A stretch of DNA of 64,000 nt from Nitzschia sp. DOCU1 (Eukaryota; Bacillariophyta; Bacillariophyceae; Bacillariales; Bacillariaceae), in contig OX595986.1 of assembly GCA_951394045.1 (NCBI GenBank), positions 1,240,001-1,304,000 on the forward strand. Reading direction: 5' to 3'. Position 1 is the stretch's first letter. Each line of letters opens with the position of its first letter. Below, one piece after another: positions 3,307 through 44,203 of this stretch. Both the position numbers and the translations under genes were made by a program. The notes beneath the pieces were generated by a model. It did no database searches, was not told where the DNA came from, and saw only the letters and a list, made by a program, of their open reading frames with translations.

Positions 3307-4708
3307 GATATGTCGACTCTGTCAATACAGCTTTGGAGGAGGGGTCAAGTAGTAGTCTTGTGGTTGTGTGTGTCAAGACGAAACATGTGTGCATTGGCGT
3401 TTTCGTTGGGTTTCATCGTCATTCTACCCGGTAGCTGGGTGCAAAGGTTGTTCCAACGGCTTTTGACGGACGATTTACAACGTCCCTCTCGAACAAAAAT
3501 ACAAATGTTCGTTAAGGATTCATCCGACTTTATAGACGCGAATCATGCGACAGACAGTCAGTCAGTACGACGACACACTGAAAAGGCGAGAATGGAACAA
3601 TGGCGAAGTGGCAGATAGATACCAATCCCGCTATTTGCACGAAAGAACTTCGAAGAAGCGAAGCATGCGACATGGATTACGACACAACGACGAAATGGCA
3701 GGTAGGGGGCAATCCCGGCGCGAACGGGCCTATGGAGATACTATCATCCCTCCCTCGCATCGGTTCTATGGATAGCAAGAGACGTACCTGGTAATTCCTA
3801 ATCTAAGAGAGAGCACTACGCAAATATGTGTCTTCACACTGCAGTAAACTTGTACATCATGCATGACAAAGTCCGATGGAACTTCGAGGCGGAATTTAGC
3901 ATTGAAATGTCTTTGTACAAGTATAAAGAAACAGTTCATATGCCTCCTTGTTCGGGTTGAAGGAGATGGCTGCGGACGTGGCGTGGTCTCGAACTCACTT
4001 CTCCTTGGAGAACACTATCAGTCACTTTATCGAACCCAGAGTTTGAGATTGCTTAAATCGATCCATGAAGGTAATATGCCTTTGCATTGAAGGAAATCCG
4101 AGACCACTCCGATATTGTCCCCCACTTTCTTGCCGGATGGTTCAATATTCTTGTTGGCAATCACGGCGACAGCTTGCAATGTTGCGAATTGTCCGAACTG
4201 TGTGCACTGTTGGTCACAGACAGTCAGTCAGTCTTCGAATACCGGTTTCAGTGGGAAGCGGCAAGAAGGCCTACCAGTATGGTGATGTCTTGGCAATAAT
4301 TGAAAGGTTATGTCGGAGTCTCAGAAGTTTCGCCGAGGTCCGCAAATTATTCTGTGAAGAACTCAGTGTTAATTAATAGCACTCCTGCTTACAGCACTGT
4401 CAGTACTGTACGCTCCCTCCAATGAGCGCGTTATGCTTTTCTCTGACGCAAATCCTCACACCTGTACCTTACCCAAGCGCTTATCGTTGGCGTCTTTGTT
4501 ACCGGTAGTGGTACTGATGAGTGCTGTGTGTGGGTCCAATTGCCCAATTCATCCGCGATGAAGGGCGTTACCCTTCTTTCGCGTTGGTAGCAAAATTCGC
4601 GACCCCGACGATCTTGCATCACAAATCGGCACTGATACTCTGAAACCTTGCGAGACATCTCTCATCACAAGCCTCATTGAGAAAAGCATCTTGCTTACTT
4701 ACTTCATC
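3307..4708. other. Intergenic, divergent promoter region
   Basis: This stretch lies between two divergently transcribed genes. Only short open frames without recognisable similarity occur. The motif cagacagtcagtcagt appears twice, near 3550 and 4215. Nothing else is supported. Confidence 0.5.
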
Positions 4709-5878: not shown

Positions 5879-8689
5879 TTACGCTAGTCCCGGCGTTAAA
5901 CCACCGTCAGTGTGATTATCTGGCTCCGTATCCCGCGAGCTCTCCTCTGCCTTTTCTTCTTGCTTTTGCCTGTGATCCTGTCTTGCCGTCACGTATTCTC
6001 GATATTGCTTATCACCTTGAAATGGACGCTCGCCAATGAGATCAATCATGTCATCGTGCGTGATCGTTTCCTTTTCCATCAATAGTTTGGCGACACTTTC
6101 TACCTGATCCTTTCGCGAACGGATCAATTCGACCGTTCGCTGGTAGGCCGCATCGACAATGGCTCGAGCTTCCTCGTCCATCGCTTCGGCGGTCGCGTCC
6201 GAATAAGGCTTATCTCCAGGTTGCCCGTCGTCCCGTGGAAACGATAGCTGACCAACACGAGAGTTCATGCCGTAGTTTTGGATCGTGCTGTATACTAACT
6301 GCGTCACACGTCGAAGATCATCTGATGCTCCAGTGGTGACTCGACCAAAGAACACTTCTTCGGCTGCTCTTCCTGCCAGAGCCATACATACGATATCCAT
6401 AATCTGATCCTGCGTTCGCAGAAACACTTCCTTTGGTAAATACTGCGCAAAACCGAGTGCCCCGCTAGCTCTGGGAATGATGGTCACCTTCAAGAGAGGA
6501 TCAGCATGTTCCAAGAACCATCCCGCAACAGCATGACCCGCCTCATGATGAGCTACGATCTCACGTTCGTGGGTGCTCATAATCTTGTTGCTTTCAAGAC
6601 CACCAATGATTCTGTCAGTCGCCTTCTCAAAGTCTTCAATGGTCACTGTCTCTGCCTTGCGCCGAGCAGCGACAATTGCAGCTTCGTTACAAAGATTGGC
6701 AATGTCTGCTCCTGCAAAGCCCGGAGTCAACCCAGCCAGTCGACCAGCATAGTCTTCCGCGTCTCCGTCCAAAGTGATTCCCTTAAGATGCACATGGAAA
6801 ATTTCCTTCCGTCCTCGCAAATCCGGCTTGTCAACTGTTATTTGTCGATCAAAGCGACCAGGGCGCGTCAAGGCTTGATCCAAAATGTCGATACGATTTG
6901 TACCGGCAAGGACAACGACCCCCGTCGTAGGACTGAAACCGTCCATCTCCACCAAAAGTTGATTCAACGTATTTTCCCGTTCATCATTGCCTCCGGAAAA
7001 GCCTCCACGTCCGCGTTGTCGTCCGACAGCGTCGATTTCATCAATAAACACAATACAGGGCGCATTGGCTCTTGCCTCCTTGAAGAGATCGCGAACTCGG
7101 GAAGGGCCGACACCGACAAACATTTCTATTCAGCGCGAAAGACACACAATGCAACAAGTGAGGGGTGCCAAGTTCAGACTCGACCACGCCGGCGACCGGC
7201 AATCCATCTCCTCGGTACTCACCAATAAAGTCTGATCCCGAAATCGAGTAGAAGGGGACACCGGCTTCCCCAGCTACAGCCTTGGCCAGTAACGTTTTAC
7301 CTGCACGGAAACAAGTCGTTAGAATATCTTCAGTGCGTGATCCATCCTTGCCACAAACCGTCCTGTTTACTAACCTGTACCCGGCGGACCACAAAGAAGA
7401 GCCCCCTTGGGAATCTTGGCTCCCAACTTGGTGAATCGAGACGAATCCTTCAAAAAATCAACAAACTCCATCACTTCTTTCTTGGCTTGTTCACACCCCG
7501 CGACATGCGTAAAGTCAACCTGAACCGATTCAGGATTGATCTTTTTAGCATTGGACTTGCCAATTTGGAAAATGCCTCCCATGCCACCACCGCCACCGGC
7601 TCCACCGCCACCCGCTCCAGCACCGCCCATCATTCCGCGGGAGTAATAGTACAAAATACCCAACATGGCCAGCATGGGTGTGGCCTTGATGAATTCCACC
7701 AGCAAATTAACTTCATTGACGTACTGAACCGGGATCCATTCTCGAGGATGAATGTGATTTTGCGCCTTGGATAGCTTTTCTTCGAAGGATTCAATGCTTC
7801 CAATGTAAAAGTGATAGAACGGTGTGTTTTGTGAGGAAGATCGAATGGACGATGAAGGGCTGCCACTTGATGTCGCGTCGGCGCTCGGCTCATTGAACTC
7901 GAGAACAGTGCCATCGTCCTCGTCGTGATGCTGATGTTGCTCACGTGGCGTCGCCCCTTCTGTAATGTGGAAATCTGTCGACATCATTTTCGAATCAGCC
8001 TGTGAGGGAATTCCTCGCGATCCAGGGTGTAAAATGACTCGTGCCAACGAATTGTTCACCACCACAATCTTTTCCACTTGGCCTGATTCGAGCAAATGAT
8101 TTCGAAAGTCCACAAAGGTAATCTCCTTTCCATTACGCGTCGTTTCTTCTCCATCTACCAAAAACCGTCTAGCAGCCATGACCATTAACAGCATGGCGAT
8201 CAATGCGGGGATGTTTTGAGGATCTTGATCTTCGTTGGGTGGCGGAATGCCTTGTTTTTTGTTCTTTTGCTGTTGGCTCTTCTTGCTGGTAGACTGGAAG
8301 GTGTTGTTACTCGTCTTGCTTTTCTTCTTGGTCTCCTCGACTTCAACCGTTTTACCGTCTTTGTCCTTGGGAAAGAAATTCTCAAACCCCTTGGGGACCT
8401 TGGCCCACCATTGCTCTAAAAACCACGCAGAGGCCGACGACATGGGAAATAGAAACTCTGAAACGTTCGGATATGATCTTGTCGACGACCACAGCGGCTC
8501 CTCTGACGGACCCTTATTTCGGCTTAGCCACTCTTCTACCGGAATGGCGCGGACTGTTGCAACGGGGGGTCTCGAAGGACGCCCCGTCGAAATGTGGTTG
8601 CTAGGAATAGTCCGTCTCGATGACCCCACCGCGGACGGGACCCGCCGCTTGAAATGCCTGATTAAAAGGCTGCTAGTAGCGGACGACAT
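5879..8689 (-). CDS. Mitochondrial m-AAA protease (FtsH/AFG3L2 type), 3 exons
   Basis: Exons 8689-7375, 7300-7223 and 7125-5879 join in frame to 879 aa. The introns are 7301-7374 (74 nt) and 7126-7222 (97 nt), both GT-AG. The basic, acid-poor N-terminus looks like a mitochondrial presequence. A membrane segment near residues 155-175 and another near 300 ([14 protein letters not shown]) bracket an intermembrane-space domain, and a Gly-rich linker follows. The first intron splits the Walker A motif (GPPGTGKT, about 434-441). The second falls just before [14 protein letters not shown]. Walker B (FIDEID) is near 491-496 and the zinc-protease motif HEAGH is at about 658-662. The family forms hexamers in the mitochondrial inner membrane that degrade unassembled proteins and process mitoribosomal components. 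The close homologue could instead be a plastid FtsH, but the soluble insert and layout fit m-AAA best. Confidence 0.93.
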
Positions 8690-9400
8690 GGTGAATCAAA
8701 ATCGAATAATCGAGCAAAAGCTGACCAGCGGAAGGTTTTTGTGGTTGCTCTATTATTCACCGGGAGAAGAAAGGCAAATGCCCGCAACGGAATGTTGTTA
8801 CGAAAAAGAACGATAAGGATCGAATGGGATCCTTCCTAATCGTGTGCGTTGTCAATAGGTTCGTCCGCCTTTTGTGGAACCACGTTGACGCAGAGCGAAA
8901 GATGGTTTGCTAAACTATGTCATGTTCTATCCCAAGTATGAGGGTACCAGTATACTGTTCTTCACTGCCTACCCGACAGACGAACGAACCCAAGAATGTC
9001 TGTCGGTAAAAACTCGGCGAAGGAAACAAAGAAAGCAAGAGCCTTTCGGGGTTTCTGCCATACTTCGGGTCACACACGGGGACATTTCGAACGTTTCTAC
9101 GGGACTTCTCGTAACAAAATTGGGTAGGACCTATTTACTCTATCCGTTGTGCGTTCTTGCACTGCACCCAAAGCGGCCAAGTAAGTGCGTGAATTACAGC
9201 GGCGGGAAGTTCCGAATCGACACCACCGCGCGGCGAAACACGTTTCATCGAGAGCATCGCCACCACCACCACCACACTGTGCTGCCAGAACAAACGAGAA
9301 AGAAGCAACAAGAGCTTCTCAAGCACGGCACAACCAGAAGCGGGCGAGAAACGAAGAGTCACTGGCGGCTATTTTGGATCTCCATTTCTTTCATTCTGGC
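8690..9400. other. Divergent intergenic region / possible 5' UTR
   Basis: This separates the protease gene from the gene at 9401. A GTAAGT donor-like site at about 9180 and an open frame from 8907 leave open an upstream non-coding or coding exon for the 9401 gene. No homology supports it. Confidence 0.4.
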
Positions 9401-17403: not shown

Positions 17404-18855
17404 TTACTGGATCTTCTTCTCGGAATGTATCCTGAGTGTCGTCCGTGATAAAAATTTGTAGAGTGCAAAGATACAGCCCAAGGCGAAGCATACGGCGGAC
17501 ACGTAGTGAAACATCTTGGCAGTACCGACGGCAGCTTGCAGTTTCCCACCAATAATGGCACCTGTCGATCTTCCGATTCCGTTGTACGACCCATTGAGAA
17601 GCAAAAGCATTGTTGCTTGAGCCCCTTCGGGTGCAAGTTCACTGGCGTAAACAGTCGCTGTGCTCCAGAACGATCCAAATGTCAAGCCTCGAACTGCTTC
17701 GCCAATATGTGCGTATATACATTTGTCCATGATTGCATAAAGACCAAAACGCAAAGATGCTGCGAAAAGACTGATAAGTAGAACTGCATTCGTACCGAGT
17801 ATGGAAGTGAGTGCCCCTGCATACCAGAACATGATCGCCCCGGCACCGCTGGAAGTCAGCCTACTATTCCCCATCGTTGCCCCACTGCAGCCGATTTCTC
17901 GAAACCGAGTATAAGTGAAATTATCAGCGATCCCTCCAGAAATGCCCATGACGTAGACAACCGTAAAAAACACGACAGCTTCCGTGTTCTTTGCCAACGA
18001 CAAGATTACTTCCTTGGGGGATAGCTGCTTGGTTTTCGGCTTGACGGTAGATTCTTTGTTGTTCGCTGCGTCTATCAGACCATGCTTCTTATGATCCACT
18101 TGGAAGGATCGCATCGCTAGAAACAAAGGAATGTGCAGGGCAATGTCTACAAAAAAGAGCAGCCGAAACCCTGATAAACTCGCATAGAAAGCACGGAACA
18201 TTTCAACGGGTGACGTAATTTGTCCCCATTGAAACGCCTTTGCAGGACTGTCGTCAATGAAATAGCCCCCCATGCTTGTACCGATACCAGTTCCCACCAA
18301 GGCCCATAATCTCATTCTTCCGTACTGTGATCGGTCATGTAACTGGTGTAACACCACGGAATCGATCAGCGGTTTGATGGGCGCTCCAAAGATTGACTTG
18401 ATGCACACTATCGCCATGACAACATACGGGTCATTCACCGCACCCACGAGAAGTTTGCCTAACAGGGTAATGGCAATCGTGGTGTACAGAATCGCAAACG
18501 GCGCCTGCATCGAATCCGAGACGACGCCCCAGAAAGGCCCCACCAAAAAGGTCACTGCGGGCGTAATCGACCCCAGAAGGCCCACTATTTGCCCACCATA
18601 ACCCAACGATTCGTAGTACATCGGTAGATACGGCTGTAAAACACCTTCAGCCATGTAAAATGTAACGTAGAGTACACGAATCAGCATCACGGTAAACCAG
18701 TCGTCCTTTTCTGCAGGCGATTCGGCGGGTTTCGGCATCCTCATCTGCGCCACCTTCTCATCCGTCTCCTTTTTCAATGTCTTGGTTTCTTCTGCTGTCC
18801 TGACTACTGCCTGGGGCTTGCTCATCTCGTATTGTATTCTAGTATGCGATGCCAT
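17404..18855 (-). CDS. Major facilitator superfamily transporter (MFS_1-like), intronless
   Basis: 483 aa with an ATG start. About 12 hydrophobic segments follow a charged cytosolic N-terminus. The first, RVLYVTFYMAEGVLQPYLPMYYESLGYGGQIVGLLGSI, resembles the MFS_1-like (LacY/nucleoside-H+ symporter-related) group. The loop HDRSQYGRMRLWALVGTGIG matches the conserved D-R-x-x-x-G-R-x-R between helices of that group. The substrate cannot be predicted. It is paralogous to the gene at 19706-21542 on the same strand. It lacks the intron found in that copy at the equivalent place (ATM before LLLLNGSYNG). Confidence 0.85.
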   Translation of the reverse strand: MASHTRIQYEMSKPQAVVRTAEETKTLKKETDEKVAQMRMPKPAESPAEKDDWFTVMLIRVLYVTFYMAEGVLQPYLPMYYESLGYGGQIVGLLGSITPAVTFLVGPFWGVVSDSMQAPFAILYTTIAITLLGKLLVGAVNDPYVVMAIVCIKSIFGAPIKPLIDSVVLHQLHDRSQYGRMRLWALVGTGIGTSMGGYFIDDSPAKAFQWGQITSPVEMFRAFYASLSGFRLLFFVDIALHIPLFLAMRSFQVDHKKHGLIDAANNKESTVKPKTKQLSPKEVILSLAKNTEAVVFFTVVYVMGISGGIADNFTYTRFREIGCSGATMGNSRLTSSGAGAIMFWYAGALTSILGTNAVLLISLFAASLRFGLYAIMDKCIYAHIGEAVRGLTFGSFWSTATVYASELAPEGAQATMLLLLNGSYNGIGRSTGAIIGGKLQAAVGTAKMFHYVSAVCFALGCIFALYKFLSRTTLRIHSEKKIQ

Positions 18856-19705
18856 TTGTCAATCCTCGACTGCTAACGGAGAATGAGATACTTGCCAATG
18901 TGAAAGCGAGAAGACGACAAACGAAAGAAAGTGTGATGTGTGGGGTTACATCGTGCCCCGCGTGTTTGGAAAAATGTCACGGGGAATCACCACGAGAGGA
19001 GTGAACGGAATGATGGGCGCGGCCATCATCGCGCAGACCGACCGAATCTCAGAATCTTGACGAAGCGCGCGGGCGAGCCAAGAATCTTTGGAAGACGGCG
19101 GCAAGCACAGGCCACTCCACATAGCTAACGGTAGCTCTCTCGAGAGCATAGTAACTACCGCGACTACAAGTAGGGAGACCTGCACTTTTAAATGCAGAAG
19201 TGGACCATCGATCGATGATTTCGTGGAGGTGCTGTTGTAAAAAGTAGCTAATAAAGGTCATTTTTCATTTACTCTATATGAAAGCCGAGTGCCAATCGTT
19301 TGTAGCAGTCGCACAAATCAATCTTGCGTCCTCTACTACTAGCTCCAGTGAAGGCAAACGAGAGTACCGCGGCTCTTCCGAGAGAGACTCGTTTCTATGC
19401 ATCGTGACCCTAGATTTTCAAGATATAACGGGACCGAAGCTTCTATCAACACGAGCAAAGTTCTTCAGAGCTAGATCATCCAGTAGCTGCAATTGCGATC
19501 GGAGGAATGTTCCGAGGTTGCCCCTGCAGATCAATGATCCATCTAAAGGGGAGCCACGATCTCGTTCCCGCTGCCGCAGTTCATGGATATAATGGCTCCT
19601 TTCGTTTTGAGAAAACCACACAAAACTCAGTTGTAACCAGGCATCGGTCGAAAGCGACAAAGGCCGAGTTGTTATTCGGCCAGTTGAGCGGGAGCTTGGC
19701 TTCGT
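18856..19705. other. Intergenic between MFS paralogues
   Basis: Holds the promoter of the 18855 gene. A short CTCTCGAGAG palindrome lies near 19136. No gene is supported. Confidence 0.4.
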
Positions 19706-21542
19706 CTATCCTTTCGGCGGGATGCTAGGACTGGCGGTAATACTCTTCTCTCCGTTTTCGTCTGGAACGTTTCTCGTACGTGGTACGATGGGCTGGGGAT
19801 TCTTGAAACTGCTCTCCTTTCGAACATTGAGATACGCAATCACTAATGCGACGAAGAAAAAATCGCAAATTCCGCAATACAGAAAAGTCCGGACAGTTCC
19901 CACTTTGGACTGTAGTTTCCCTCCGATGATGGCTCCTAATGACTGCCCTAAGCCTCCGTACATGGCATTCAGAAACATCAGCTGAAAATAAAACAGGTGA
20001 GCACGACTTTAAACACAAGCATAACACCTCACGATTTTGTTGTCTCACCATAGTAGCGCTCAGGCCAGGTGGTGCTATCCGACTGGCGTAAATTGTGCAT
20101 GTACTCCAAAATGCGGCAAAGGTGACACCTCGCAATGCTTCGGCTGGTAGACCCTGCAGCGGACTTTGCATCAATGCGTAGATCAAAAATCGTACCACAT
20201 AGGTTATGAGGCTCCATACGATTACTTGATCAGCCCCCAATAGCTCGGTAAGAGGCCCTGAGAACCAAAACATTGGGGCACCGGCAATGCTCGACACCAA
20301 TCGGCTCAGTCCCATGTCTTTGCCAGTCCCTCCGACTTCTCGGATGCGAACGTATGCAAAATTTTCAATGATACCACTAGACACTCCGACCACCAAAACT
20401 AAGAAAAAGAAGAGCAGCGCGTCACTGTTGTGTAGCAAGACGCTGAGGCCAGTCCATACGCTAGGAGATGGCTTCTTTTCTTCCGTGGCACCGACGTGTC
20501 GTGCTTTCGATTCCTTGGTGGCTTTTTCTTTCTCGTTGTGGAGTTTGTGGAATGCACGTATACATATCCACGTCGGTACCGACAGAAAAGCATACGTCAG
20601 AAATAGGAGTTTGTAACCTGTCAGACTTTGCCAGAAATTGTCCAGCATCTCCAGAATCGAATGACCGTCGTTGTGATGATACGGACGATGTTTGCTTTTA
20701 CTGAGCAGTATTCCAACGCCACTGCTACCCAACCCAAAACCCATTTGACCCCACAATCGAAGTCTGCCGTAGCGTGACCGGTCGTGCAGATGATCCATCA
20801 CCATTGAGTCAAGCAGGGACTTGACAGGCGCGTTGAAGAAAGCAGTAATGAACACCCAGACCATAATGTAAGTTGGATCATGTTTCCAAGCGACGAGGAG
20901 CTGTCCAACCAGCGAGACAAGAAACGTGAAGTATAGAACCATGAAGGGACTACCACTTTGGTCGGAAACGATGCCCCAGAATGGGGCCACCAGGAATGTC
21001 GTGAAAGGTTTGATAGCACCCAACAGGCCAATAACTTGCCCACCATGTCCAAGGGAGTGATAGTAGACTGGCAAATACGGTAGTAGTGACCCTAACGACC
21101 CATAGTATGTAATGAACAAGAGTCGAATCAGCATCAAGATCCTGGGGTCGTCTTCGTTACCCTCTTCCACCACAGTTTCTGGTGGGGGTGTAACAACAAC
21201 CGGTGGTGGTGGAGGAGGTGGTGGGTTGATTGGTTCTGCTCTTGAATGTTGATCTGTACTCTTTGTTAGGACGCCGCCTCGATACCCCCAGATACCTCGT
21301 TGTGAATGACCATCTAGCTCTTGGCCATTCAGGGATGATCGAAATGTCCGCCTTATGCTTGCATTGGATTTCTCAGCCTCGACAAGGCACCGAGGTCTCA
21401 ACGGTGAATTATAATCTCTACTCAAGAGAAGCAAGTAAGCCCCTATTAGCCAAGTTCGGAGATGAAAGCGGCCGGCCACATTCTGCCGTCGACGACGCCT
21501 TGAAGCCACCCTGCCAATTAAAAGATTCTCTTTTGCTGCCAT
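19706..21542 (-). CDS. Major facilitator superfamily transporter, second paralogue, 2 exons
   Basis: Exons 21542-20049 and 19981-19706 (67-nt GT-AG intron) give 589 aa, starting at the first ATG (MAAKENLLIGRV). The N-terminus is very basic, with a hydrophobic anchor (TWLIGAYLLLL), a Ser-rich stretch and a polyproline tract (8 Pro) before the first transporter helix. The transporter core aligns by eye with its neighbour: LIRLLFITYYGSLGSLLPYLP, DHLHDRSRYGRLRLWGQMGFG, and after the splice LMFLNAMYGGLGQSLGAIIGGKLQ. About 12 membrane segments are visible. The long N-terminal extension is absent from the paralogue and could direct it to a different membrane. Substrate unknown. Confidence 0.85.
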
Positions 21543-22055
21543 TGCAACGTCGTTTCGCCTGCACTGAGATGACAAGCTGAAACTAAAATTTGATAATCTC
21601 GAATGGTTGATGATTAGACCAAGATTCCGAGGATTCCTTTAGTCATCTGGCTGGGTTTGCCGATTCAAAGGTTGGCTGGGTCGGCTGAAGGCTTTGTGAT
21701 CGAGATCTAGAGTGGCGGCGTCCGTTTGGTTTCGATTTTTTGAGGCTCATCTTTATTTCAACAACGAAAAGATTCCGCGCCTCATTCACTCCCACGTGGA
21801 GGTTCGTTGTTGGACGCAGAGGAGAGAGCAAAGAACAAAAGTCGACGGACGACGGACGGCAACACATTGATTGAATCCAAGAAATCAGAGGCCACAAAAA
21901 CCTATTCATACATACCACAAAAGTTTTAGATGGCACCACATACAACCTTTCGTTGCTTTTGGTGTTTGTTTTACTCTACAAAAAGTAGCCCTTGAGTTTG
22001 CATCTCGTCGGATTGACCGAAGAAATTGATTATTGCTTTTGCATGAGCTGCAATA
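21543..22055. other. Divergent intergenic region
   Basis: Lies between the second MFS gene and the LYR gene. Short open frames only. Confidence 0.4.
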
Positions 22056-32190: not shown

Positions 32191-33312
32191 TTAATACCCG
32201 CAGTGAATGGCGCAGTCGATCACCGTTTTGGCGGTGATTGTAGAGACGATCTCTTGCACCTGGTTCGGCACCGAAATCGTCGCCGCGTTCACGATTCCAT
32301 TACTAAAGTACCGATTCTGGCGCAAGCGGCGGGCCAGAATGTGAAAAACTAGCTCAATGGGGTTTAGTTCCGGTGCCCTGGTGGGCAAGGGAACTACCAC
32401 AACCCTCCGAACCTCCCACAAAAGGTCGGCAACGATGGCAGCTTCGGCGCCTGAGTGAATTGCCGCATTGTCTAGAATAAGCACATCGTAGGGCTCGAAC
32501 CAGCCGATTTCGAGCAAGTACTCGATGTAGGCCGTGAAATTAGCGGCAGTACCGTTTTCTTCACCAATGCTGTAGTGCATTGGTGGTCCCACCTGATTGC
32601 ATCGTATGATCGCAATCATATTGTAGGCCCTTCGAAAGTTTCCCGACACCAGAATGCACCGAACCGCCCCTGTGATAGGGTCGGCACGAACCCTATTGTT
32701 GTAACAATCCTTGTTCACGATATGTTTCTCGTCGATAAAATGAAACTTGTCGTGTCGGGGCAAGGAAGCGATCGTCCGCATGAACTCGTGATATGCCTGA
32801 ATATTGGACGGCTTCCACTTATCCAGTGGAACCATGGACGACTTCCTCAGACTTCCCTTGTGTTGGAACCGCTTTTTAAAGAAGTTGTCGATTGTCGTCA
32901 CACACACAACTGTCCCAGTTGCCAGCTGGAGGCCCCGCTGGTAGTCAGTCAACAATTGCTGGTCGTTCTCACAGCGAAGTGACAGAAGGACCAAAGATTC
33001 TTCGGGACCGAGTTTAGTGTATTGTTGTCTTATTGCCCTTAAATCGTCTTGGTACTCCGTAGGCTCCCTGACATAGCCCATAGCCAAATACTCTTGAACA
33101 ACATTGTAGGCAAACCTGAGTCCTACCCGACAATCCGCCGCCACCTCCCGTATGTGGAGCGCCCCAAAGCTGCGTCCATCTTGTTCAATTTCTTCGTCCA
33201 TGGCAAGGTTGGCCTTTTGGCGATCCAAAAAGGCCTCGATGACTGCCATTCGTTTGTCAATCCCGTACCGACTACCTCGATGGTAGTACCCTCCGTGGTC
33301 GTTGATGTCCAT
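32191..33312 (-). CDS. DDE transposase (DD38E, IS630/Tc1-mariner superfamily)
   Basis: 373 aa, intact. An N-terminal helix-turn-helix region (residues 20-80, DKRMAVIEAFL... REVAADCRVGLRFAYNVVQEYL) precedes a DDE_3 catalytic core. The likely triad is D194 (FHFIDEKHI), D281 (VLILDNAAIHSG) and E320 (APELNPIELVFHIL), with 38 residues between the last two. The LDNAxxH and NPIE contexts are diagnostic of the superfamily. The enzyme would cut and rejoin the element ends at TA sites in the nucleus. The start codon lies 37 bp inside the right terminal repeat, which probably supplies the promoter. Confidence 0.92.
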   Translation of the reverse strand: MDINDHGGYYHRGSRYGIDKRMAVIEAFLDRQKANLAMDEEIEQDGRSFGALHIREVAADCRVGLRFAYNVVQEYLAMGYVREPTEYQDDLRAIRQQYTKLGPEESLVLLSLRCENDQQLLTDYQRGLQLATGTVVCVTTIDNFFKKRFQHKGSLRKSSMVPLDKWKPSNIQAYHEFMRTIASLPRHDKFHFIDEKHIVNKDCYNNRVRADPITGAVRCILVSGNFRRAYNMIAIIRCNQVGPPMHYSIGEENGTAANFTAYIEYLLEIGWFEPYDVLILDNAAIHSGAEAAIVADLLWEVRRVVVVPLPTRAPELNPIELVFHILARRLRQNRYFSNGIVNAATISVPNQVQEIVSTITAKTVIDCAIHCGY

Positions 33313-33348
33313 ATTGTAGTACGATGCAGGTAGATTGGTGATTATTGG

Positions 33349-33567: not shown

Positions 33568-33785
33568 TATAAGCCAATCAAAATACAGCAGGCAAGGGAA
33601 CACAACTGGGCCCAGGTTCTTCGTCGTCGAGCGAAAGGGCAGTGTCGTTCCTCGGATGCAAAGGCACCCAAAGTCATGATAACACCGTTCTTTGGCATCA
33701 AGTCCTCTCCCTTAGCTGTGGTCCTCACACAGGACGACGGGTCCACCTCTGTTTTCACGACAAAGCACATATTACAGCAATCACA

Positions 33786-36117
33786 ATGTCGGGCATGAAA
33801 GTAGGTTAGATCGTGCGGATCTCTTTACATTGATCGTTCGATTTGGAAACTGGACTTATCTGCGAGGAATCTGCTCAACATACAGTCGGAGCAAAAGAGT
33901 CATTTTGGGTTGGAGGGAAATATCAGAAGTGAAATTGAAAATAGGGGGTTCGCCGAATTGCCAAGCGGTATCTCTAATCCCATCCCTTTTGCTTGTCATA
34001 CAGGCTACTTTGAACACGGATCGCCTTAACAAGGTCCTGGATGACTGGAACAAGGTGAAGGCCCTTCCAGACTGGGATAAGCAATCGGGCAAAGTTTTGT
34101 TTCAAAACTTGTTCGAAAAATGCCCTGAAGCCAAACCACTTTTCGGCTTTTCGATGAGGGTCGACCCTCGCAGTGATAACATCTTGAAGAGTAACCGCTT
34201 TGCAAAGCACTCTAAGTTTCTCATCAAAATGGTCGATAAGACCGTCCAGATGTTGGCCTCGGAGTCGGAAACCAGCGACGACGAAGACGGTCGTACGGTC
34301 ATTCTCACAGACATTCTTATCAAGCTTGGAAAGAAGCACGTCTCCTTCGGCGTCAAGCCCGAGTGGTTCCCCTTCATGACTGAGTCACTGATTGCCATGC
34401 TCGAAGAAGTCATCGGAGGTGCTAATAGCGACGCCTGGCGAGACGTGTTCGACTTTCTTTGCTATCACATGGACTACGGCCACAAACTCATTGACAAGGA
34501 TTATGCCGCAGGAAAGGACAAGGCAATCTGCATGGCTGTTTGGGATCGGTTCTCGAAAGTTCCTGAGTACAAGAGGAAGGGTGGCCTCGTCCTCTTCCAG
34601 AACCTTTTCGATCTTTGTCCCCAGGTTAAGCCGCTCTTTGGGTTCCCCCCTGATGCGGATCCGCAGTCGGAGACTTTACTGAAGAGCGCTCGTTTCGCCC
34701 TTCACTCACAATTTCTGATCAATATGCTTGAGAAGACGATTGCTTTGCTTGGTGAAGATAACGAAACTCTGTCCGCCAACCTCTTAGAGCTAGGAAAGAA
34801 ACACGTCTCGTTCGGAGTCACGGCGGAGATGTTCCCGTACATGACCGATTCTTTGATTGCCATGCTCAACGAGCTGTTGGGCAAGGAGTTTACCCCTGAC
34901 GACCAAGAGTCCTTCGAGAATGTGATGTCTCTGATGATTGCTGATTTGGTCAAAGGACAACGTACGGTTGATAAGACTCTTGCCGACAACAACAAAGACA
35001 TTGTTATCAATAGTTGGGAAAGGCTGACGAAGATTTCAGATTATGAAACGAGGGGAGGCCTGTTCCTTTTCCAAACGTAAGTTGATTACACGTGTATCGG
35101 TTTGACGCTTGCATCCCAACTCATGATTTGTCCTATTCTGCTTATGCCGTTACTACCAGCCTGTTTACGCTCTGTCCGGAAGCTAAGCTTTTGTTTGGGT
35201 TCCCCGAAGATACCGATCCGACCTCCGAAAAGCTTCTCAAGAACGAGTTGTTCAAGAAGCACGCGACTTTCTTGTTGAATATGATTGGTAAGACTGTTTC
35301 TATGTTGGGATACGCTTCCGACGATGACAAGAAGTTGGAAGCCGACCTGATGGAAATTGGAAGGAAGCATGTCACCTACGGTGTGAAGGCAGAGTATTTC
35401 CCTCTTATGACTCAGTCTGTGATCAAGACTTTGCAAGAAATGCTAGGTGGCGATTTCAGTGCCGAGGAAGCGAAAGCTTGGGAGAATATTCTTTCTCTAT
35501 TGATTGCCGACATGGTGAAGGGACAACGCACACTAGATATGGGGCTAGCTGCTGCCAACACCAATGTCACCAAGAGGAACTGGGACGCCCTTAAGAGGAT
35601 CAAGGATTACGATGAAGTTGGAGGCGTTGAAATTTTCTACAAGTAAGTCTTTTCTGTCGTTGTAGTCGATTTGTTTCAAGTGTTTTTGATGCTGACCACT
35701 TCTTTTTCTCGATGTAGCCTCTTCCAAGTTTGCCCTGAAGCCAAGACATTTTTCGGGTTCATGGAGAATTTCCCGGTTGAGGAGATTCGTCACAGCAAGC
35801 GCATTTTGGTACACGGTTCGTTCATTGTCGAGATGGTTGAACGTGCGTTGGACTGGATTGGGCAAGACGATTTCGAGTTGGAGAAAATGCTCCACGAGCT
35901 TGGGACGAAGCATTCTCAGTACAATGTCAAGCCAGAGCACATGCCTTTCATGCAAAAGTCTATCATTATTATGCTCAAAACCCTTCTCAAAGAAGATGCA
36001 TTCAGCCCTGATGATGAAAAGGCTTGGGATAATGTCCTCGGTTCCCTAGTCGCAAACATCACCAGAGCACAGCGAGCGATCGCGATGAAGAAACTTTCTG
36101 AAGAGCTTGCGCTCTAA
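33786..36117 (+). CDS. Tetra-domain globin, copy A, 4 exons
   Basis: Exons 33786-33800, 34004-35076, 35160-35642 and 35718-36117 (introns 203, 83 and 75 nt) give 656 aa. Four globin domains follow each other with almost no linker, each opening with a W...Y/W and LFxxCPxxKxxFGF block (helices A-CD). Candidate distal (E7) histidines are H74, H239, H397 and H556. Candidate proximal (F8) histidines are H117, H272, H433 and H589, in the LGxKHVxxGV context that resembles neuroglobin/cytoglobin. Domain 1 has an acidic insertion between the two. Domain 4 is the most divergent (KHSQYNV). No signal peptide or other domain is present. The protein should be cytosolic and bind four haems; whether it stores O2, detoxifies NO or senses redox state is unknown. 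A transposon ends 218 bp upstream of its ATG. Confidence 0.88.
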
Positions 36118-36807
36118 TTGTCTACTTTCTTACACCAATTTAGCGTCGGTGCATTTAATCATTCCCGTCCCCGTGGTTGAAACGACAGCAGCGATTTGTT
36201 GGGGAAGGCTAGCTTCTGCGTATGTAGTGCTCTGAAGAGAGTCGCCGCGGGTTAACTCAAGTCTAGAGTACACTTTAGACAAACTGTTTCATCGCCTTTC
36301 ACACAAGATTTGTTAACTGCCACTATGAGCCTCCCGGTTTTTCTGAATTTCTTTGGTGGCTATAGGTAAGACACAGGGAAGATAGACAGGCTGTTTTGTC
36401 AAATTCGTTGATAATGTAATTTGGGTCCGTGATGGGGCCACCACAGTATCGGTAGCGCAAAACATCTTTCGTTCTGTGAGACGAGGATTATGACCCGGCG
36501 CAGTGCTGCTCAGAACAATGAATCCTCGGCCGGCTCGCAGCAGGGAAGAGGAAAGTCATAATGGTCTTTAAGTATCATTTAGTCGAAATGACCTCCGGAA
36601 TTATTGCAAATATCATATCATAGAAGCAGCCGCTGATCGCCATCTGGTGCGAGAAAAATACTCTATACCTGTACCTCAGAGATCGTTCGTCCTTCTCTGG
36701 CATCAAATCTGTGGAGCGGAGAAATTTCGTCTTCCTCTCATCTCATCATACGACGACAACTGTCCATCCCTGTGTTTCACCACAAAGCACAAATCACAGC
36801 AATCACA
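36118..36807. other. Intergenic between the globin genes
   Basis: Contains the 3' UTR of copy A and the promoter of copy B. The last 25 bp before the start codon match those of copy A (aaagcacaaatcacagcaatcaca), with patchy similarity back to about 36690. Confidence 0.5.
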
Positions 36808-39138
36808 ATGTCGGGCATGTCATCTATGAAAGTAAGTTGAAACGCTTGGATCAAATCTTAGAGCCATTGTTCGATGTGAAAATTGGAACTTCTCCGCCAG
36901 CAACTCGGACGGTCGAGGCCGTAGAGTCATTGGGATTGCGGAATGTCAGAAATGAAACTGAGAATGACCCGCTGCATTGACTGTTGAGAATACCTAACCC
37001 CAAATCTTTTGCTTGTCATACAGGCTACTTTGAACACGGATCGCCTTAACAAGGTCCTGGATGACTGGAACAAGGTGAAGGCCCTTCCAGACTGGGATAA
37101 GCAATCGGGCAAAGTTTTGTTTCAAAACTTGTTCGAAAAATGCCCAGACGCCAAACCACTTTTCGGCTTTTCGATGAGGGTCGACCCTCGCAGTGATAAC
37201 ATCTTGAAGAGTAACCGCTTTGCAAAGCACTCTAAGTTTCTCATCAAAATGGTCGATAAGACCGTCCAGATGCTGGCCGCGGAGTCGGAAACCAGCGACG
37301 ACGAAGACGGTCGTACGGTCATTCTCACAGACACACTTATCAAGCTTGGAAAGAAGCACGTCTCCTTCGGCGTCAAGCCCGAGTGGTTCCCCTTCATGAC
37401 TGAGTCACTGATTGCCATGCTCGAAGAAGTCATCGGAGGTGCTAATAGCGACGCCTGGCGAGACGTGTTCGACTTCCTTTGCTATCACATGGACTACGGC
37501 CACAAACTCATTGACAAGGATTATGCCGCAGGAAAGGACAAGGCAATCTGCATGGCTGTTTGGGATCGGTTCTCGAAAGTTCCTGAGTACAAGAGGAAGG
37601 GTGGCCTCGTCCTCTTCCAGAACCTTTTCGATCTTTGTCCCCAGGTTAAGCCGCTCTTTGGGTTCCCCCCTGATGCGGATCCGCAGTCGGAGACTTTACT
37701 GAAGAGCGCTCGTTTCGCCCTTCACTCACAATTTCTGATCAATATGCTTGAGAAGACGATTGCTTTGCTTGGTGAAGATAACGAAACTCTGTCCGCCAAC
37801 CTCTTAGAGCTAGGAAAGAAACACGTCTCGTTCGGAGTCACGGCGGAGATGTTCCCGTACATGACCGATTCTTTGATTGCCATGCTCAACGAGCTGTTGG
37901 GCAAGGAGTTTACCCCTGACGACCAAGAGTCCTTCGAGAATGTGATGTCTCTGATGATTGCTGATTTGGTCAAAGGACAACGTACGGTTGATAAGACTCT
38001 TGCCGACAACAACAAAGACATTGTTATCAATAGTTGGGAAAGGCTGACGAAGATTTCAGATTATGAAACGAGGGGAGGCCTGTTCCTTTTCCAAACGTAA
38101 GTTGATTACACGTGTATCGGTTTGACGCTTGCATCCCAGCTCATGATTTGTCCCATTCTGTTTTTGCCGTTACTACCAGCCTGTTTACGCTCTGTCCGGA
38201 AGCTAAGCTTTTGTTTGGGTTCCCCGAAGATACCGATCCGAACTCCGAAAAGCTTCTCAAGAACGAGTTGTTCAAGAAGCACGCGACTTTCTTGTTGAAT
38301 ATGATTGGTAAGACTGTTTCTATGTTGGGATACGCTTCCGACGATGACGAGAAGCTGGAAGCCGACCTGATGGACATTGGAAGGAAACATGTCACCTACG
38401 GTGTGAAGGCAGAGTATTTCCCTCTGATGACTCAGTCTGTGATCAAGACTTTGCAAGAAATGCTTGGTGGCGATTTCAGTGCCGAGGAAGCGAAAGCTTG
38501 GGAGAATATTCTTTCTCTACTGATTTCCGACATGGTGAAGGGACAGCGCACACTAGATATGGGGCTAGCTGCTGCCAACACCAATGTCACCAGGAGGAAC
38601 TGGGACGCCCTCAAGAGGATCAAGGATTACGATGAAGTTGGAGGCGTTGAAATTTTCCACAAGTAAGTCTTTTTCTGTCGTTGTAGTCGATTTGTTTCAA
38701 GTGTTTTTGATGCTGACCACTTCTTTTTCTCGATGTAGCCTCTTCCAAGTTTGTCCTGAAGCCAAGACATTTTTCGGGTTTATGGAGAATTTCCCGGTTG
38801 AGGAGATTCGTCACAGCAAGCGCATTTTGGTACACGGTTCGTTCATTGTCGAGATGGTTGAACGTGCGTTGGACTGGATCGGTCAAGACGATTTCGAGTT
38901 GGAGAAAATGCTCCACGAGCTTGGGACGAAGCATTCCCAGTACAACGTCAGGCCAGAGCACATGCCTTACATGCAACAGTCTATTATTGTCATGCTCAAG
39001 GCCCTTCTGAAGGAAGATGCTTTCAGCCCCGAAGATGAAAAGGCTTGGGACAACGTCCTCAGCTCCCTCGTCGCAAACATCACCAGAGCCCAGCGAGCGA
39101 TCGCGATGAAGAAACTTTCTGAAGAGCTTGCGCTCTAA
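36808..39138 (+). CDS. Tetra-domain globin, copy B, 4 exons
   Basis: Exons 36808-36831, 37024-38096, 38180-38662 and 38739-39138 give 659 aa, with the same architecture and splice phases as copy A. It differs by three extra residues at the N-terminus (MSGMSSMK) and a small number of substitutions, mostly in exon 4. All eight candidate haem histidines are kept. Exon 2 and the beginning of intron 2 are virtually identical to copy A, including a stretch of more than 600 bp without a visible difference, whereas intron 1 is barely alignable. The gene is the downstream member of a tandem pair. It has no transposon in its upstream region, so it may represent the original regulation. Confidence 0.88.
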
Positions 39139-41208: not shown

Positions 41209-43336
41209 CTTAGTGTGGGCATTTTCGATTGTCGTCGCACACACGAGGGCAAAGAAGGTATCACACCCATTATCCGTTAGTGAGCACGGCATCAACATCA
41301 CGGGCTTTTGTATTCCGAACTTAATGGGCACAATTAAAATACGAAACTTATTAATTGTTTCTAAACTGTTATCTTCACTTCCACTACTAGAGTCGTGAGA
41401 CTCAGGTAGCCGCTGTTTATCGTTCCGGCGATTTGGCGAGATCATTCCTTCCCAATCGTTCAGCTAACTGCTAAATGGATAGCACATACTTTTCGCTGCT
41501 TTAATAGTACTGTAGTTTTGGGATGTGTACGAACGATCCGCTGATGACGCCACTACTGTTGCTACTGTAGGTGTGCTATCTCTATTATTTAGCTACGGAG
41601 GGCGTGCCCTAAATTAGCTAGCAATCATACGGCCAGTTGATTAGTGTTGGTTGCTGATAGCTAATGTTGTTATCCGCTGCGTCCTAGCTGGGAAGATCAC
41701 ACCTCAATCTTCGGCGTCCGTTTCTTGGGTAGACCACTTCCAGCCGTGTACTAAACGCCCATTACTCGTGCCTTCATGACATACTGAGCGGTATCTAATC
41801 TATGGGCCTCTGCTAGCTTTGCAGCAATGATGTCATCATTTTCGCGACAGATCCAGAGCTCAATTTGGAGGTCAAGAATCTGGTTCCTGATTTCACGAAC
41901 ATTCTCCAAGAATAATTAGGAAGCAAGACTCCAATCCAGCACGCTTGCAATAGTTTCTTGGCAGCAGTGCCTCATTGTATCGAACCATCTCAATGGTTTC
42001 TTCACATTCCTGGCGAATTTTGCGAATCTCATCACGGCTGTACCAGCACTGTTGGTCGATCGTGGACTGAACTCGTCCAAGAAAAACATATGCGGAATCT
42101 CCCTGTCAAGAACAACGGTTGTCAGCGAAGGAAACATTTCTTCTTCGTCTCGATACTACTTCTTGTTCTTTCGTTTTTTTCTCGTCAGCGGATAAGTTCT
42201 CAAGGCCAATTTGATCACGCATCCTTGCGAAGATCTCAGGTTTGCTGGCCTTCGCACTGCCTCAACGGAATGCAGCCGCGGATCGACTGCCGAAGTGGGA
42301 GACGGGCGACGAGGAAAGCATGTCCTTCTCCTCTGGTCTGTCGTTCTCACACTGATGAATCATTTTTGAAATTGTTGTTGGTTTAAACTGTTGCTCTAGC
42401 TGTTGTTTGGTTTGTGGTTCGGCTGATGCTGAGAGTCGAAAAGATTAAGCGTTGTCCTAATTTTGTTGAGCCAGAGCGTTTTGTGAAAGCTCACACATCG
42501 GACCAAGACCCTGCCTAATGAACCAGTTTTAGTGGGTGATATACATATGCCCTTCGGAGAAATGGAGTGGCTTGACGAACATTTTAATTGCACTAATATA
42601 TGCCTAATACCCCAGCCCTTGCGAGCCTTGGTTCCCCTTTTTTGCGATATCCCGAAGTAGAAGGCAATAATAAGTGCAATTAAGTGGCTTGACGAACATT
42701 CTACTCGCACAAATATATGCCTAATATCATAGCCCTTGCGAACCCTTGTTTTCTCCTTACCCCAGTATCCCGAAGGTCGCCGAACAGTTTTAGTTCTTGA
42801 CGAAATTTTAGTTGCACTAATATATGCCCACTCGTGTGCTGGAAGCTAGACGAACCTTTATAATTAATTGAAAAACATATGCCACAGGAGCATGCTGCGT
42901 GACATCATGATGTTCTGTAAGAGTATGTGTCCACTTTTTTCATCAACGCCACGGATATTCGCGATCCTGTTGACATTATCGTATGCATATTAACAGACGA
43001 TCATAAACGATATAGTACCGGTACTCGTCGATAGTACCGGATAACCATACAAGTACAGTTAATAGGCGGTGATCGAGATTTCTTTCCAGCCCTTGCGAAC
43101 CTGGATCGCCATTCGAGTTAACACCAATCGTGGTGCGAAAAGACTCGGACGAGGAAGAACAAGTACAGCAATCCGTACATGTAGACCGAGCAATCACCAG
43201 CAAAAATGGAAGTACCGACGTCGTTTTTCTTTATCCATCAAGAAATCAATCGTCGTCATAAAATCCAGAACAATCGTTCACTCCAAAATAGACCGACAAC
43301 CAAGCACAATTCACGACGACACCTGCTGCTGGAACA
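41209..43336. other. 2.1-kb intergenic tract with degenerate tandem repeats
   Basis: No gene is recognised. Short frames at 41958-42386 and 42396-42710 show no known domain. The repeat array at 42566-42880 is described separately. Confidence 0.5.
42566..42880. repeat. Degenerate tandem repeat, about 110-117 bp period
   Basis: Units begin at about 42566, 42683 and 42792 with agtggcttgacgaacatt or agttcttgacgaaatttt. Each contains gcactaatatatgcc, and the first two contain cccttgcgarccyttg. A weaker, shorter unit starts near 42844. The divergence and irregular spacing argue against a CRISPR array. Confidence 0.7.
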
Positions 43337-44203
43337 ATGAAGCTCTTCAGCGTCGCTCAAACCATTTTCAGTTTCGTTCTATTCTGTTCCATTGTTCCTG
43401 AAAATCTTGCACGTCCAGGTGGTAAGGAAGGTGGATGCGGCTGTTCAGGTGCTCCAAAGGGTGGTCCGAAAAACAACAACAAGGTGCCAAAAGGTGCACC
43501 CCAAAACGGCGTACGAACGGTGCCTAGCATCATGCCTAACATTTTCTCTATCATGAGGTTCGCTCATGATGTCATCCGATCAATGCAAGATGAGATCTCG
43601 AAGTATCTCCAGGAAAATGACTACTGTGCAGCTGAGTTGTTATGGGAAGACTTGGCTGATTTTCTGGCCATCCATCTGTTCATGGAGGAAGGGAACAACG
43701 ACAATATAACGCCGAAGGGATTGTTCAAAGTTATTGATCAGGTCAACTCCACGGGCTTCACCCAGGGCAATCTGAATGATCATGTTGATGTTATCAAGGT
43801 GGAGACGATGTTCGAGTGTGCCGTGACGCTGTGCGAAGATGAATGCGTCCCGTTGATTCAATTCGTCTTTGATACCTTCGTTGAACGCAACAATGCACAT
43901 CTATTGTCTGAGGAAGCAATTTTGCAACCGAACGTCGCAAAGATTGCAAACAAGACGGACACGATGAAGACCGAGATTCTAGCCCTAGTAATCAAATCTG
44001 ACGGCTTTGAGGAATGGGTGATGACCGCAATGAAATACCTCGAACCACAGACGACAGGTTCACTCAGCAAAGCTACGGTCTTTGCTGAAGCCCTCTATGA
44101 GTGCCGTTCTGATCAAAAGGAATGGGAAAAGTGGCTCGGATGGATTGCTGACTCTGTTAATTCGACTACCTTTGAATCTGTCTTGAACGCTGTTGGGTAC
44201 TAA
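43337..44203 (+). CDS. Secreted protein with hemerythrin-like His/Glu pattern
   Basis: 288 aa. A signal peptide (MKLFSVAQTIFSFVLFCSIV) is followed by a Gly/Lys/Asn-rich spacer with a CGCSG cluster. A helical domain follows, with HDVIRSMQDEI, then ADFLAIHLFMEEG, then NDHVDVIKVE. The H...H-x-x-x-E arrangement is reminiscent of HHE/hemerythrin helices, but not all ligands are in place. The remainder contains several Cys (CAVTLCEDEC, YECRS) and N-glycosylation sites (NST, NKT). It is likely extracellular or in the secretory pathway. The hemerythrin assignment is weak; an unknown diatom secreted family is equally possible. Confidence 0.65.
   Translation: MKLFSVAQTIFSFVLFCSIVPENLARPGGKEGGCGCSGAPKGGPKNNNKVPKGAPQNGVRTVPSIMPNIFSIMRFAHDVIRSMQDEISKYLQENDYCAAELLWEDLADFLAIHLFMEEGNNDNITPKGLFKVIDQVNSTGFTQGNLNDHVDVIKVETMFECAVTLCEDECVPLIQFVFDTFVERNNAHLLSEEAILQPNVAKIANKTDTMKTEILALVIKSDGFEEWVMTAMKYLEPQTTGSLSKATVFAEALYECRSDQKEWEKWLGWIADSVNSTTFESVLNAVGY

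What the first reader, a model, noticed from the sequence alone, without database searches (positions are those of the whole stretch)
33786..39138. Two tandem genes each encoding four covalently fused globin domains
Single-chain tetra-globins are rare outside some invertebrates. Here every one of the eight domains keeps a candidate distal and proximal His and the LFxxCPxxKxxFGF core, so all may bind haem. Domains 1-4 are internally similar, and no other domain is attached. A 656-659 aa polymeric haemoglobin in a unicellular alga suggests O2 storage, NO detoxification or redox buffering.
Basis: partly seen in the sequence, partly recalled or inferred. Interest (0 to 1): 0.88.

Follow-up and report, generated by a model that had tools for sequence, protein, structure and literature searches.

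The report
Four-in-one haemoglobin genes in a diatom
Two neighbouring genes in a diatom each encode one protein chain made of four joined haemoglobin-like units, an arrangement kept intact in several relatives but with a job that has not been measured here.

Summary
Genes A (33786-36117, 656 aa) and B (36808-39138, 659 aa) each have four exons encoding four tandem myoglobin-fold globin domains. All eight domains keep His E7, His F8, Phe CD1, Phe B10 and LFxxCPxxKxxFGF. A third four-domain paralogue lies elsewhere in the genome, which has silicon transporters, as expected of a diatom. Full four-domain relatives occur in Nitzschia inconspicua, a marine transcriptome and a metagenome. In a tree each position D1-D4 forms its own clade across species, which implies that the array arose once. 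Selection is purifying (dN/dS 0.08-0.15).

Added here: introns in D3, D4 and 16 of 17 modelled monomeric globin genes lie at B12.2, a position called ancient for animal globins. The exon between two such introns is phase 2-2 and one globin long, so domains could be added by exon duplication.

Function (inferred): a probably bis-histidyl, four-haem globin acting as NO dioxygenase and O2/NO/peroxide buffer. Known kind (polymeric globins), new variant; my ten searches of open papers found no description of it.

The parts
33786..36117 (+). gene A, four-domain globin, 656 aa; exons 33786-33800, 34004-35076, 35160-35642, 35718-36117
   Evidence: spliced in frame with GT-AG introns, Pfam Globin x4
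34004..34510 (+). gene A domain D1 (residues 6-174); E7 His74, F8 His117
   Evidence: PF00042 51.5 bits; residues from alignment
34511..34987 (+). gene A domain D2 (residues 175-333); E7 His239, F8 His272
   Evidence: PF00042 56.7 bits; ungapped to neuroglobin from helix B past E7
34988..35553 (+). gene A domain D3 (residues 334-494), split by the B12.2 intron; E7 His397, F8 His433
   Evidence: PF00042 66.4 bits
35554..36114 (+). gene A domain D4 (residues 495-656), split by the B12.2 intron; E7 His556, F8 His589
   Evidence: PF00042 72.3 bits
33801..34003 (+). gene A intron 1, phase 0, before helix A of D1
   Evidence: GTAGGT...ATACAG
35077..35159 (+). gene A intron 2, phase 2 in codon B12 of D3
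   Evidence: GTAAGT...ACCAG; codon AC|C
35643..35717 (+). gene A intron 3, phase 2 in codon B12 of D4
   Evidence: GTAAGT...TGTAG; codon AA|C
35160..35642 (+). gene A exon 3, 483 bp = 161 codons, symmetric phase 2-2, from B12 of D3 to B12 of D4
36808..39138 (+). gene B, four-domain globin, 659 aa; exons 36808-36831, 37024-38096, 38180-38662, 38739-39138
   Evidence: spliced in frame, 97.4% identical to A; four PF00042 matches
37024..37530 (+). gene B domain D1
   Evidence: PF00042 over cut-off
37531..38007 (+). gene B domain D2
   Evidence: PF00042 over cut-off; no difference from A over D2
38008..38573 (+). gene B domain D3, split by the B12.2 intron
   Evidence: PF00042 over cut-off
38574..39135 (+). 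gene B domain D4, split by the B12.2 intron
   Evidence: PF00042 over cut-off
36832..37023 (+). gene B intron 1
   Evidence: GTAAGT...ATACAG
38097..38179 (+). gene B intron 2, B12.2 of D3
38663..38738 (+). gene B intron 3, B12.2 of D4
34457..35118 (+). 662-bp tract of gene A without a substitution against gene B: recent gene conversion (inferred)
   Evidence: substitution map and per-domain dS
33741..33785 (+). 45 bp before the A start codon, 87% alike before B; the only blastn match between the two upstream stretches
   Evidence: blastn, 46 columns

Best explanation
A diatom polymeric 3/3 globin: one chain, without a recognised extra domain, of four myoglobin-fold domains joined by very short linkers, each expected to hold one haem b between His F8 and His E7. 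SHOWN: gene structure, four globin domains, conserved pocket residues, purifying selection, conservation of the ordered array in relatives, and phase-2 introns at B12. INFERRED: the array grew by duplication of a symmetric phase 2-2 exon that runs from B12 of one domain to B12 of the next, from a single-domain ancestor with a B12.2 intron; D1 and D2 later lost the intron in this lineage. INFERRED (about 0.5): Phe B10 with His E7 gives reversible bis-His coordination and high O2 affinity, as in plant class 1 phytoglobins (recalled), and the protein works mainly as an NO dioxygenase and O2/NO/peroxide buffer for pennate diatoms that meet steep redox gradients, reduced by separate cellular reductases.
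Against: No biochemistry or expression data for this genome. No reductase domain is fused and none was looked for as a partner. E11 is Leu or Ile here. His E7 also fits plain O2 binding as in myoglobin, so hexacoordination is a guess. The Seminavis paper favours O2 sensing, and I did not show that its families are the multi-domain ones. The Phaeodactylum globins co-expressed with nitrate reductase are a PF01152 and a flavohaemoglobin-type globin, not this family (PMC6779911). P0002 is filed under a ciliate; origin from diatom prey is my guess. D1 and D2 here have no intron between or inside them, so the exon-duplication route rests on D3, D4 and relatives.
Confidence: 0.5

Rival explanations
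1. An O2 store or O2 diffusion carrier: four covalently joined myoglobin-like domains raise haem capacity per molecule, as in invertebrate polymeric haemoglobins.
For: All four pockets intact; myoglobins are among the nearest folds; invertebrate covalent multimers carry or store O2 (recalled).
Against: A micrometre-sized photosynthetic cell gains little from an O2 store unless abundance is high (inference); nearest PDB sequences are plant class 1 haemoglobin and neuroglobin. Abundance was not testable.
Confidence: 0.15
2. An O2, NO or redox sensor: haem ligation changes how the four domains pack and so signals to a partner.
For: The Seminavis robusta paper suggests O2 sensing for benthic and pennate globin families (PMC7335047 passages); a Cys at C1 in 42 of 43 filled rows of the four-domain family, absent from the 12 monomers in the set, could be a thiol switch.
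Against: No output domain is recognised; all four domains, not one, are kept intact.
Confidence: 0.2
3. A peroxide- or nitrite-reducing haem enzyme, with the array serving as a multi-electron reservoir.
For: A benthic-specific Seminavis globin family is induced by H2O2 (PMC7335047); the two-haem Medicago globin reduces nitrite fast (PMC7710986).
Against: No pocket feature seen here singles out this chemistry.
Confidence: 0.1
4. Gene-model artefact: the domains belong to separate single-domain genes.
For: Monomeric globin genes with the same B12.2 intron exist in the genome.
Against: D1 and D2 share one uninterrupted exon (34004-35076); four-domain proteins from other organisms, two of them transcript-derived (P0002, and P0005 with a cut D1); position-specific clades.
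Confidence: 0.02

Closest known systems
Two-domain globins of the pennate diatom Seminavis robusta (P0047, P0050, P0052, P0061)
   Same: Phe B10, His E7, His F8, Cys C1, tandem fusion of globin domains; related in the tree.
   Different: Two domains instead of four; their domains fall outside the D1-D4 clades, E11 is Met or Phe. The globin passages of the genome paper (PMC7335047) do not mention fused domains.
Guillardia theta globin chimeras (PMC4101818)
   Same: Several 3/3 globin domains in one chain of a unicellular alga.
   Different: Three globin domains with a putative cytochrome b5 N-terminus, mostly hydrophobic E7, atypical introns.
Invertebrate polymeric globins (Artemia, Daphnia, Ascaris, sea urchin sixteen-domain globin)
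   Same: Covalent tandem globin domains; the sea urchin case is treated as a neuroglobin orthologue (PMC3485006 passages).
   Different: Animals; several are extracellular pigments (recalled); independent origin was not tested here.
Plant class 1 phytoglobins, including two-haem MtGlb1-2 (PMC7710986)
   Same: Phe B10 and His E7; MtGlb1-2 joins two haem domains in one chain (passages).
   Different: Two haem domains, not four; E11 Leu or Ile here; kinship with plant globins not tested.
Neuroglobin and cytoglobin
   Same: Among the nearest folds and PDB sequences; B12.2 intron in vertebrate neuroglobin genes (PMC3485006).
   Different: Single-domain animal proteins; about 19-29% identity in the structural alignments.
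Flavohaemoglobin (Hmp)
   Same: Globin domain; weak NCBIfam match (P0004 70.7 bits against a cut-off of 432).
   Different: No FAD/NAD domain; pocket is Phe B10/His E7, not Tyr/Gln (recalled for Hmp).

Membership tests
3/3 (myoglobin-fold) globin, PF00042 | profile match over cut-off | tested here: met
   four of four quarters of A; eight of eight window domains
3/3 (myoglobin-fold) globin, PF00042 | His F8 and Phe CD1 | tested here: met
   8 of 8 window domains, 44 of 44 family domain rows
3/3 (myoglobin-fold) globin, PF00042 | three-over-three helical fold | tested here: met
3/3 (myoglobin-fold) globin, PF00042 | binds haem | not testable with these tools
   needs recombinant protein
Polymeric (covalent tandem) globin | two or more globin domains in one chain | tested here: met
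   D1 and D2 in one exon, D3 and D4 joined by in-frame introns
Polymeric (covalent tandem) globin | domains joined in one mRNA | tested here: inconclusive
   seen in transcript-derived proteins of other organisms (P0002, P0005); no RNA for this genome
Flavohaemoglobin | C-terminal FAD/NAD reductase domain | tested here: not met
   only Globin over cut-off in A
Flavohaemoglobin | Tyr B10 and Gln E7 (recalled) | tested here: not met
   Phe B10 and His E7 in 8 of 8
Truncated 2/2 globin, PF01152 | PF01152 match | tested here: not met
   Pfam scan of A gives no PF01152 match; the two genome matches lie on other contigs
Class 1 phytoglobin | Phe B10 with His E7 (recalled pattern) | tested here: met
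   8 of 8; rice B10 mutant F40L named in a PDB title
Class 1 phytoglobin | reversible bis-His coordination | not testable with these tools
   needs spectroscopy
Class 1 phytoglobin | common descent with plant globins | not tested
   no plant rows in the tree
Guillardia theta-type globin chimera | N-terminal cytochrome b5-like part | tested here: not met
   five residues precede D1 in A, eight in B; no such Pfam match in A

The most novel reading that the evidence does not exclude
A lineage of pennate diatoms evolved its own single-chain, four-haem, bis-His globin in which a nearly invariant Cys C1 in each domain, absent from the 12 monomers compared from this genome, couples haem redox or NO chemistry to packing between the four domains: a multi-electron NO/peroxide capacitor or switch unlike the globins compared here. 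Its B12.2 introns would also push that intron back before the split of stramenopiles, plants and animals and would show globin multimers built by duplicating one phase 2-2 exon.
Probability: 0.15. Interest if true: 0.82.

Novelty: new variant of a known kind. Interest (0 to 1): 0.6.

Why it matters
Covalent chains of many globins are best known from invertebrate animals (recalled). One conserved in single-celled algae, kept as four ordered domains under purifying selection, suggests that joining haems in one chain is useful without blood and gives a tractable system for testing why. B12.2 introns throughout a diatom globin family bear on the old question of whether the shared globin intron is ancestral, and the exon layout suggests how such polymers grow.

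Tried and rejected
Separate genes: rejected, D1 and D2 share an exon and four-domain relatives exist. Allelic or assembly duplicate for A and B: unlikely, since D4 differs at dS 0.225 and intron 1 is diverged, and between the flanks blastn found only one short upstream match. UreE_C match: below cut-off. Flavohaemoglobin and 2/2 globin membership: not met. Foldseek match to syNOS over 343-354 columns: the paper (passages) describes a haem globin and a pseudoglobin there; TM-score about 0.31, so taken only as two globins side by side. G7.0, the second ancestral globin intron: most second exons of the monomers and the exons of the tetra-globins run unbroken across the G helix; L009a and L023 break off earlier for reasons not settled. 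L020 and L022 could not be given a convincing B12 intron model and L021 came out two codons off; these are the misses behind 16 of 17. Papers: 10 searches; no title or abstract start in the listings showed a four-domain diatom globin, but only open-licence papers are held. A Fragilariopsis proteome passage (PMC13106929) reports a globin-like protein falling under low manganese; its domain count is unknown.

Exon coordinates were one base off at two splice sites; corrected. One search failed on a wrong frame and was repeated with the right coordinates. Rows left out: 76 domain rows in the tree come from a chosen subset of the 85 proteins plus A, B, C and 12 of the 17 modelled monomers; domain matches under 110 profile positions were dropped.
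Full report
OBSERVATION. Each has a tiny first exon (MSGMK in A, MSGMSSMK in B), a long exon with D1, D2 and the start of D3, a 483-bp exon and a last exon. All six introns are GT-AG. A is 656 aa, B 659 aa, 97.4% identical. Pfam finds four Globin stretches in A (whole-protein E 2.9e-69) and nothing else over its cut-off; B was not scanned whole, but in the genome-wide six-frame search all eight window domains pass the Globin cut-off.

HOST. The genome (52 Mb, 63 contigs) has 18 silicon-transporter matches over the cut-off, as expected of a diatom (recalled), and the named relatives with the same array are Bacillariaceae. PF00042 has 31 matches in it. A third four-domain gene, C, lies on another contig (L016 exons 2249-2263, 2478-3550, 3628-4110, 4192-4591; 656 aa) with the same exon layout. 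One search listed only three of its domains; the fourth scored 171.7 bits with a profile built here. Single-domain globin genes are also numerous.

HAEM POCKET. On the domain alignment of 76 rows, all 44 rows from the four-domain family (A, B, C and 11 retrieved proteins, several of them partial) have His E7, His F8 and Phe CD1; B10 is Phe in 40 of the 41 rows with a residue there (the exception, in P0012, lies beside a read-through intron); E11 is Leu in 34 and Ile in 10; C1 is Cys in 42 of 43 filled rows (Glu in one domain of P0008), while none of the 12 monomers in the set has Cys there. Outside this family, other multi-domain proteins mostly have Cys C1 too, with exceptions in one domain each of P0010 and P0011. 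Helix positions use recalled myoglobin and neuroglobin numbering; D2 aligns without a gap to neuroglobin from helix B past E7.

RELATIVES. Three searches of 5.8 billion proteins (in only the 7998 best candidates were scored) returned 85 distinct proteins, P0002-P0086. Three have four full domains: P0002 (651 aa, transcriptome filed under the ciliate Tiarina fusus), P0003 (a 2119-bp contig of unnamed origin, taken as metagenomic) and P0004 (Nitzschia inconspicua, 645 aa). P0005 is the same kind with a cut D1. Ten of 85 have at least three domains of more than 60 profile positions. The four proteins named as Seminavis robusta have two domains. The diatom names shown (Nitzschia, Bacillariaceae, Seminavis) are pennates (partly recalled); the search is limited in reach, so this is no proof of absence elsewhere. 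A 2006 survey lists two globins each for Thalassiosira (158 and 160 aa) and Phaeodactylum (PMC1457004 passages).

TREE. With 76 domain rows and 155 columns, D1, D2, D3 and D4 of different species fall into four separate clades (support 100/99, 99/95, 99/96, 100/99). The array is therefore older than the split of these species and its order was kept. The three-domain P0010 attaches near these clades (d1 at the base, d2 weakly with D2, d3 with D4). The Seminavis two-domain proteins with P0011 and P0041 form other branches in which d2-type domains multiplied separately. On the midpoint-rooted tree the nearest monomers of this genome are L011, L013 and L012. Long-branch rows at the base (P0086, monoL019) are flagged as unsafe and not used.

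SELECTION AND CONVERSION. dN/dS is 0.147 for A-B, 0.084 for A-C and 0.090 for B-C. A and B have no difference in D2 but dS 0.225 in D4; 662 bp, A coordinates 34457-35118, have no substitution, while intron 1 is full of them. So A and B look like older duplicates partly homogenised by gene conversion.

INTRONS. In D3 and D4 of A, B and C the intron splits the same codon after its second base, two residues after B10 and six before the Pro at C2: B12.2. The same position holds in 16 of 17 modelled monomeric genes; L021 came out two codons off, and L020 and L022 could not be modelled. Several of the 17 are incomplete as read here (L009a, L010b, L017a). B12.2 and G7.0 are called phylogenetically ancient for animal globin genes in PMC3485006 (passages); Guillardia has atypical positions (PMC4101818, first part of the text). 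Of the 85 retrieved proteins 48 have a last match that ends in the B helix of the next domain (after a domain nearest D1 in 11, D2 in 8, D3 in 29); in 38 of the 48 the protein itself ends within three residues of that point (gaps listed). This fits ORFs that stop at a B12.2 intron: a phase-2 intron that begins GTAAGT reads TAA at once, as gene A's own ORF does. P0012 appears to read through such introns in its D2 and D3. The exon between two B12.2 introns is one globin long (161 codons) and phase 2-2, so it can be duplicated without shifting the frame. That route is inferred. A parallel gain of the intron in diatoms cannot be excluded.

FUNCTION. Nothing here measures function. Phe B10 with His E7 is the class 1 phytoglobin pattern (recalled; rice B10 mutant F40L in a PDB title), and the nearest PDB sequences are plant class 1 haemoglobin and neuroglobin, with bacterial haemoglobin-like flavoproteins close behind in the profile search. 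The two-haem Medicago globin has very high O2 affinity and fast NO dioxygenase and nitrite reductase rates (PMC7710986 passages). This genome has an NO synthase domain. Phaeodactylum globins co-expressed with nitrate reductase belong to other globin types (PMC6779911 passage). The Seminavis paper reports three globin-like families of benthic signature, one pennate-restricted and tandemly expanded, two benthic-specific, one of these induced by peroxide, and suggests O2 sensing (PMC7335047 passages); that these are the multi-domain proteins is likely but not shown. NO and redox buffering is my best guess at about one half.

NOVELTY. Polymeric globins are a known kind. A conserved four-globin chain without other domains in diatoms was not in the listings of my ten searches of open papers; the N. 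inconspicua entry is named only 'globin-like protein'. I file it as a new variant.

Noticed in passing
window 32194-33348 (-): Open 385-codon frame with a DDE_3 transposase-type domain directly upstream of gene A.
   Followed up: partly
window about 33683-33703, upstream of B, and L016 upstream of 2249: A short block like TTTGGCATCAA stands before all three four-domain genes in the upstream alignment; possible shared control element.
   Followed up: no
window 43292-44200 (+): Weak hemerythrin match below the cut-off (21.0 against 25.3 bits), another O2/iron-binding fold about 4 kb from the globins.
   Followed up: no
window 17407-18858 and 19728-21638 (-): Two neighbouring MFS_1_like transporters.
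   Followed up: no
window 5882-8695 (-): FtsH-type protease parts in two ORFs: FtsH extracellular part, and AAA plus peptidase M41.
   Followed up: no
L017 (G000:C10:1813000-1822900, -): Three globin genes, one cut short as read here; the two longer ones have Phe instead of His at E7 and a long Ser/Thr-rich tail.
   Followed up: partly
G000:C14:632455-633619: NO synthase oxygenase domain in two matched stretches.
   Followed up: no
P0011 and P0041: Three- and four-domain globins of unnamed origin whose later domains are each other's nearest relatives: a second, separate domain expansion.
   Followed up: partly
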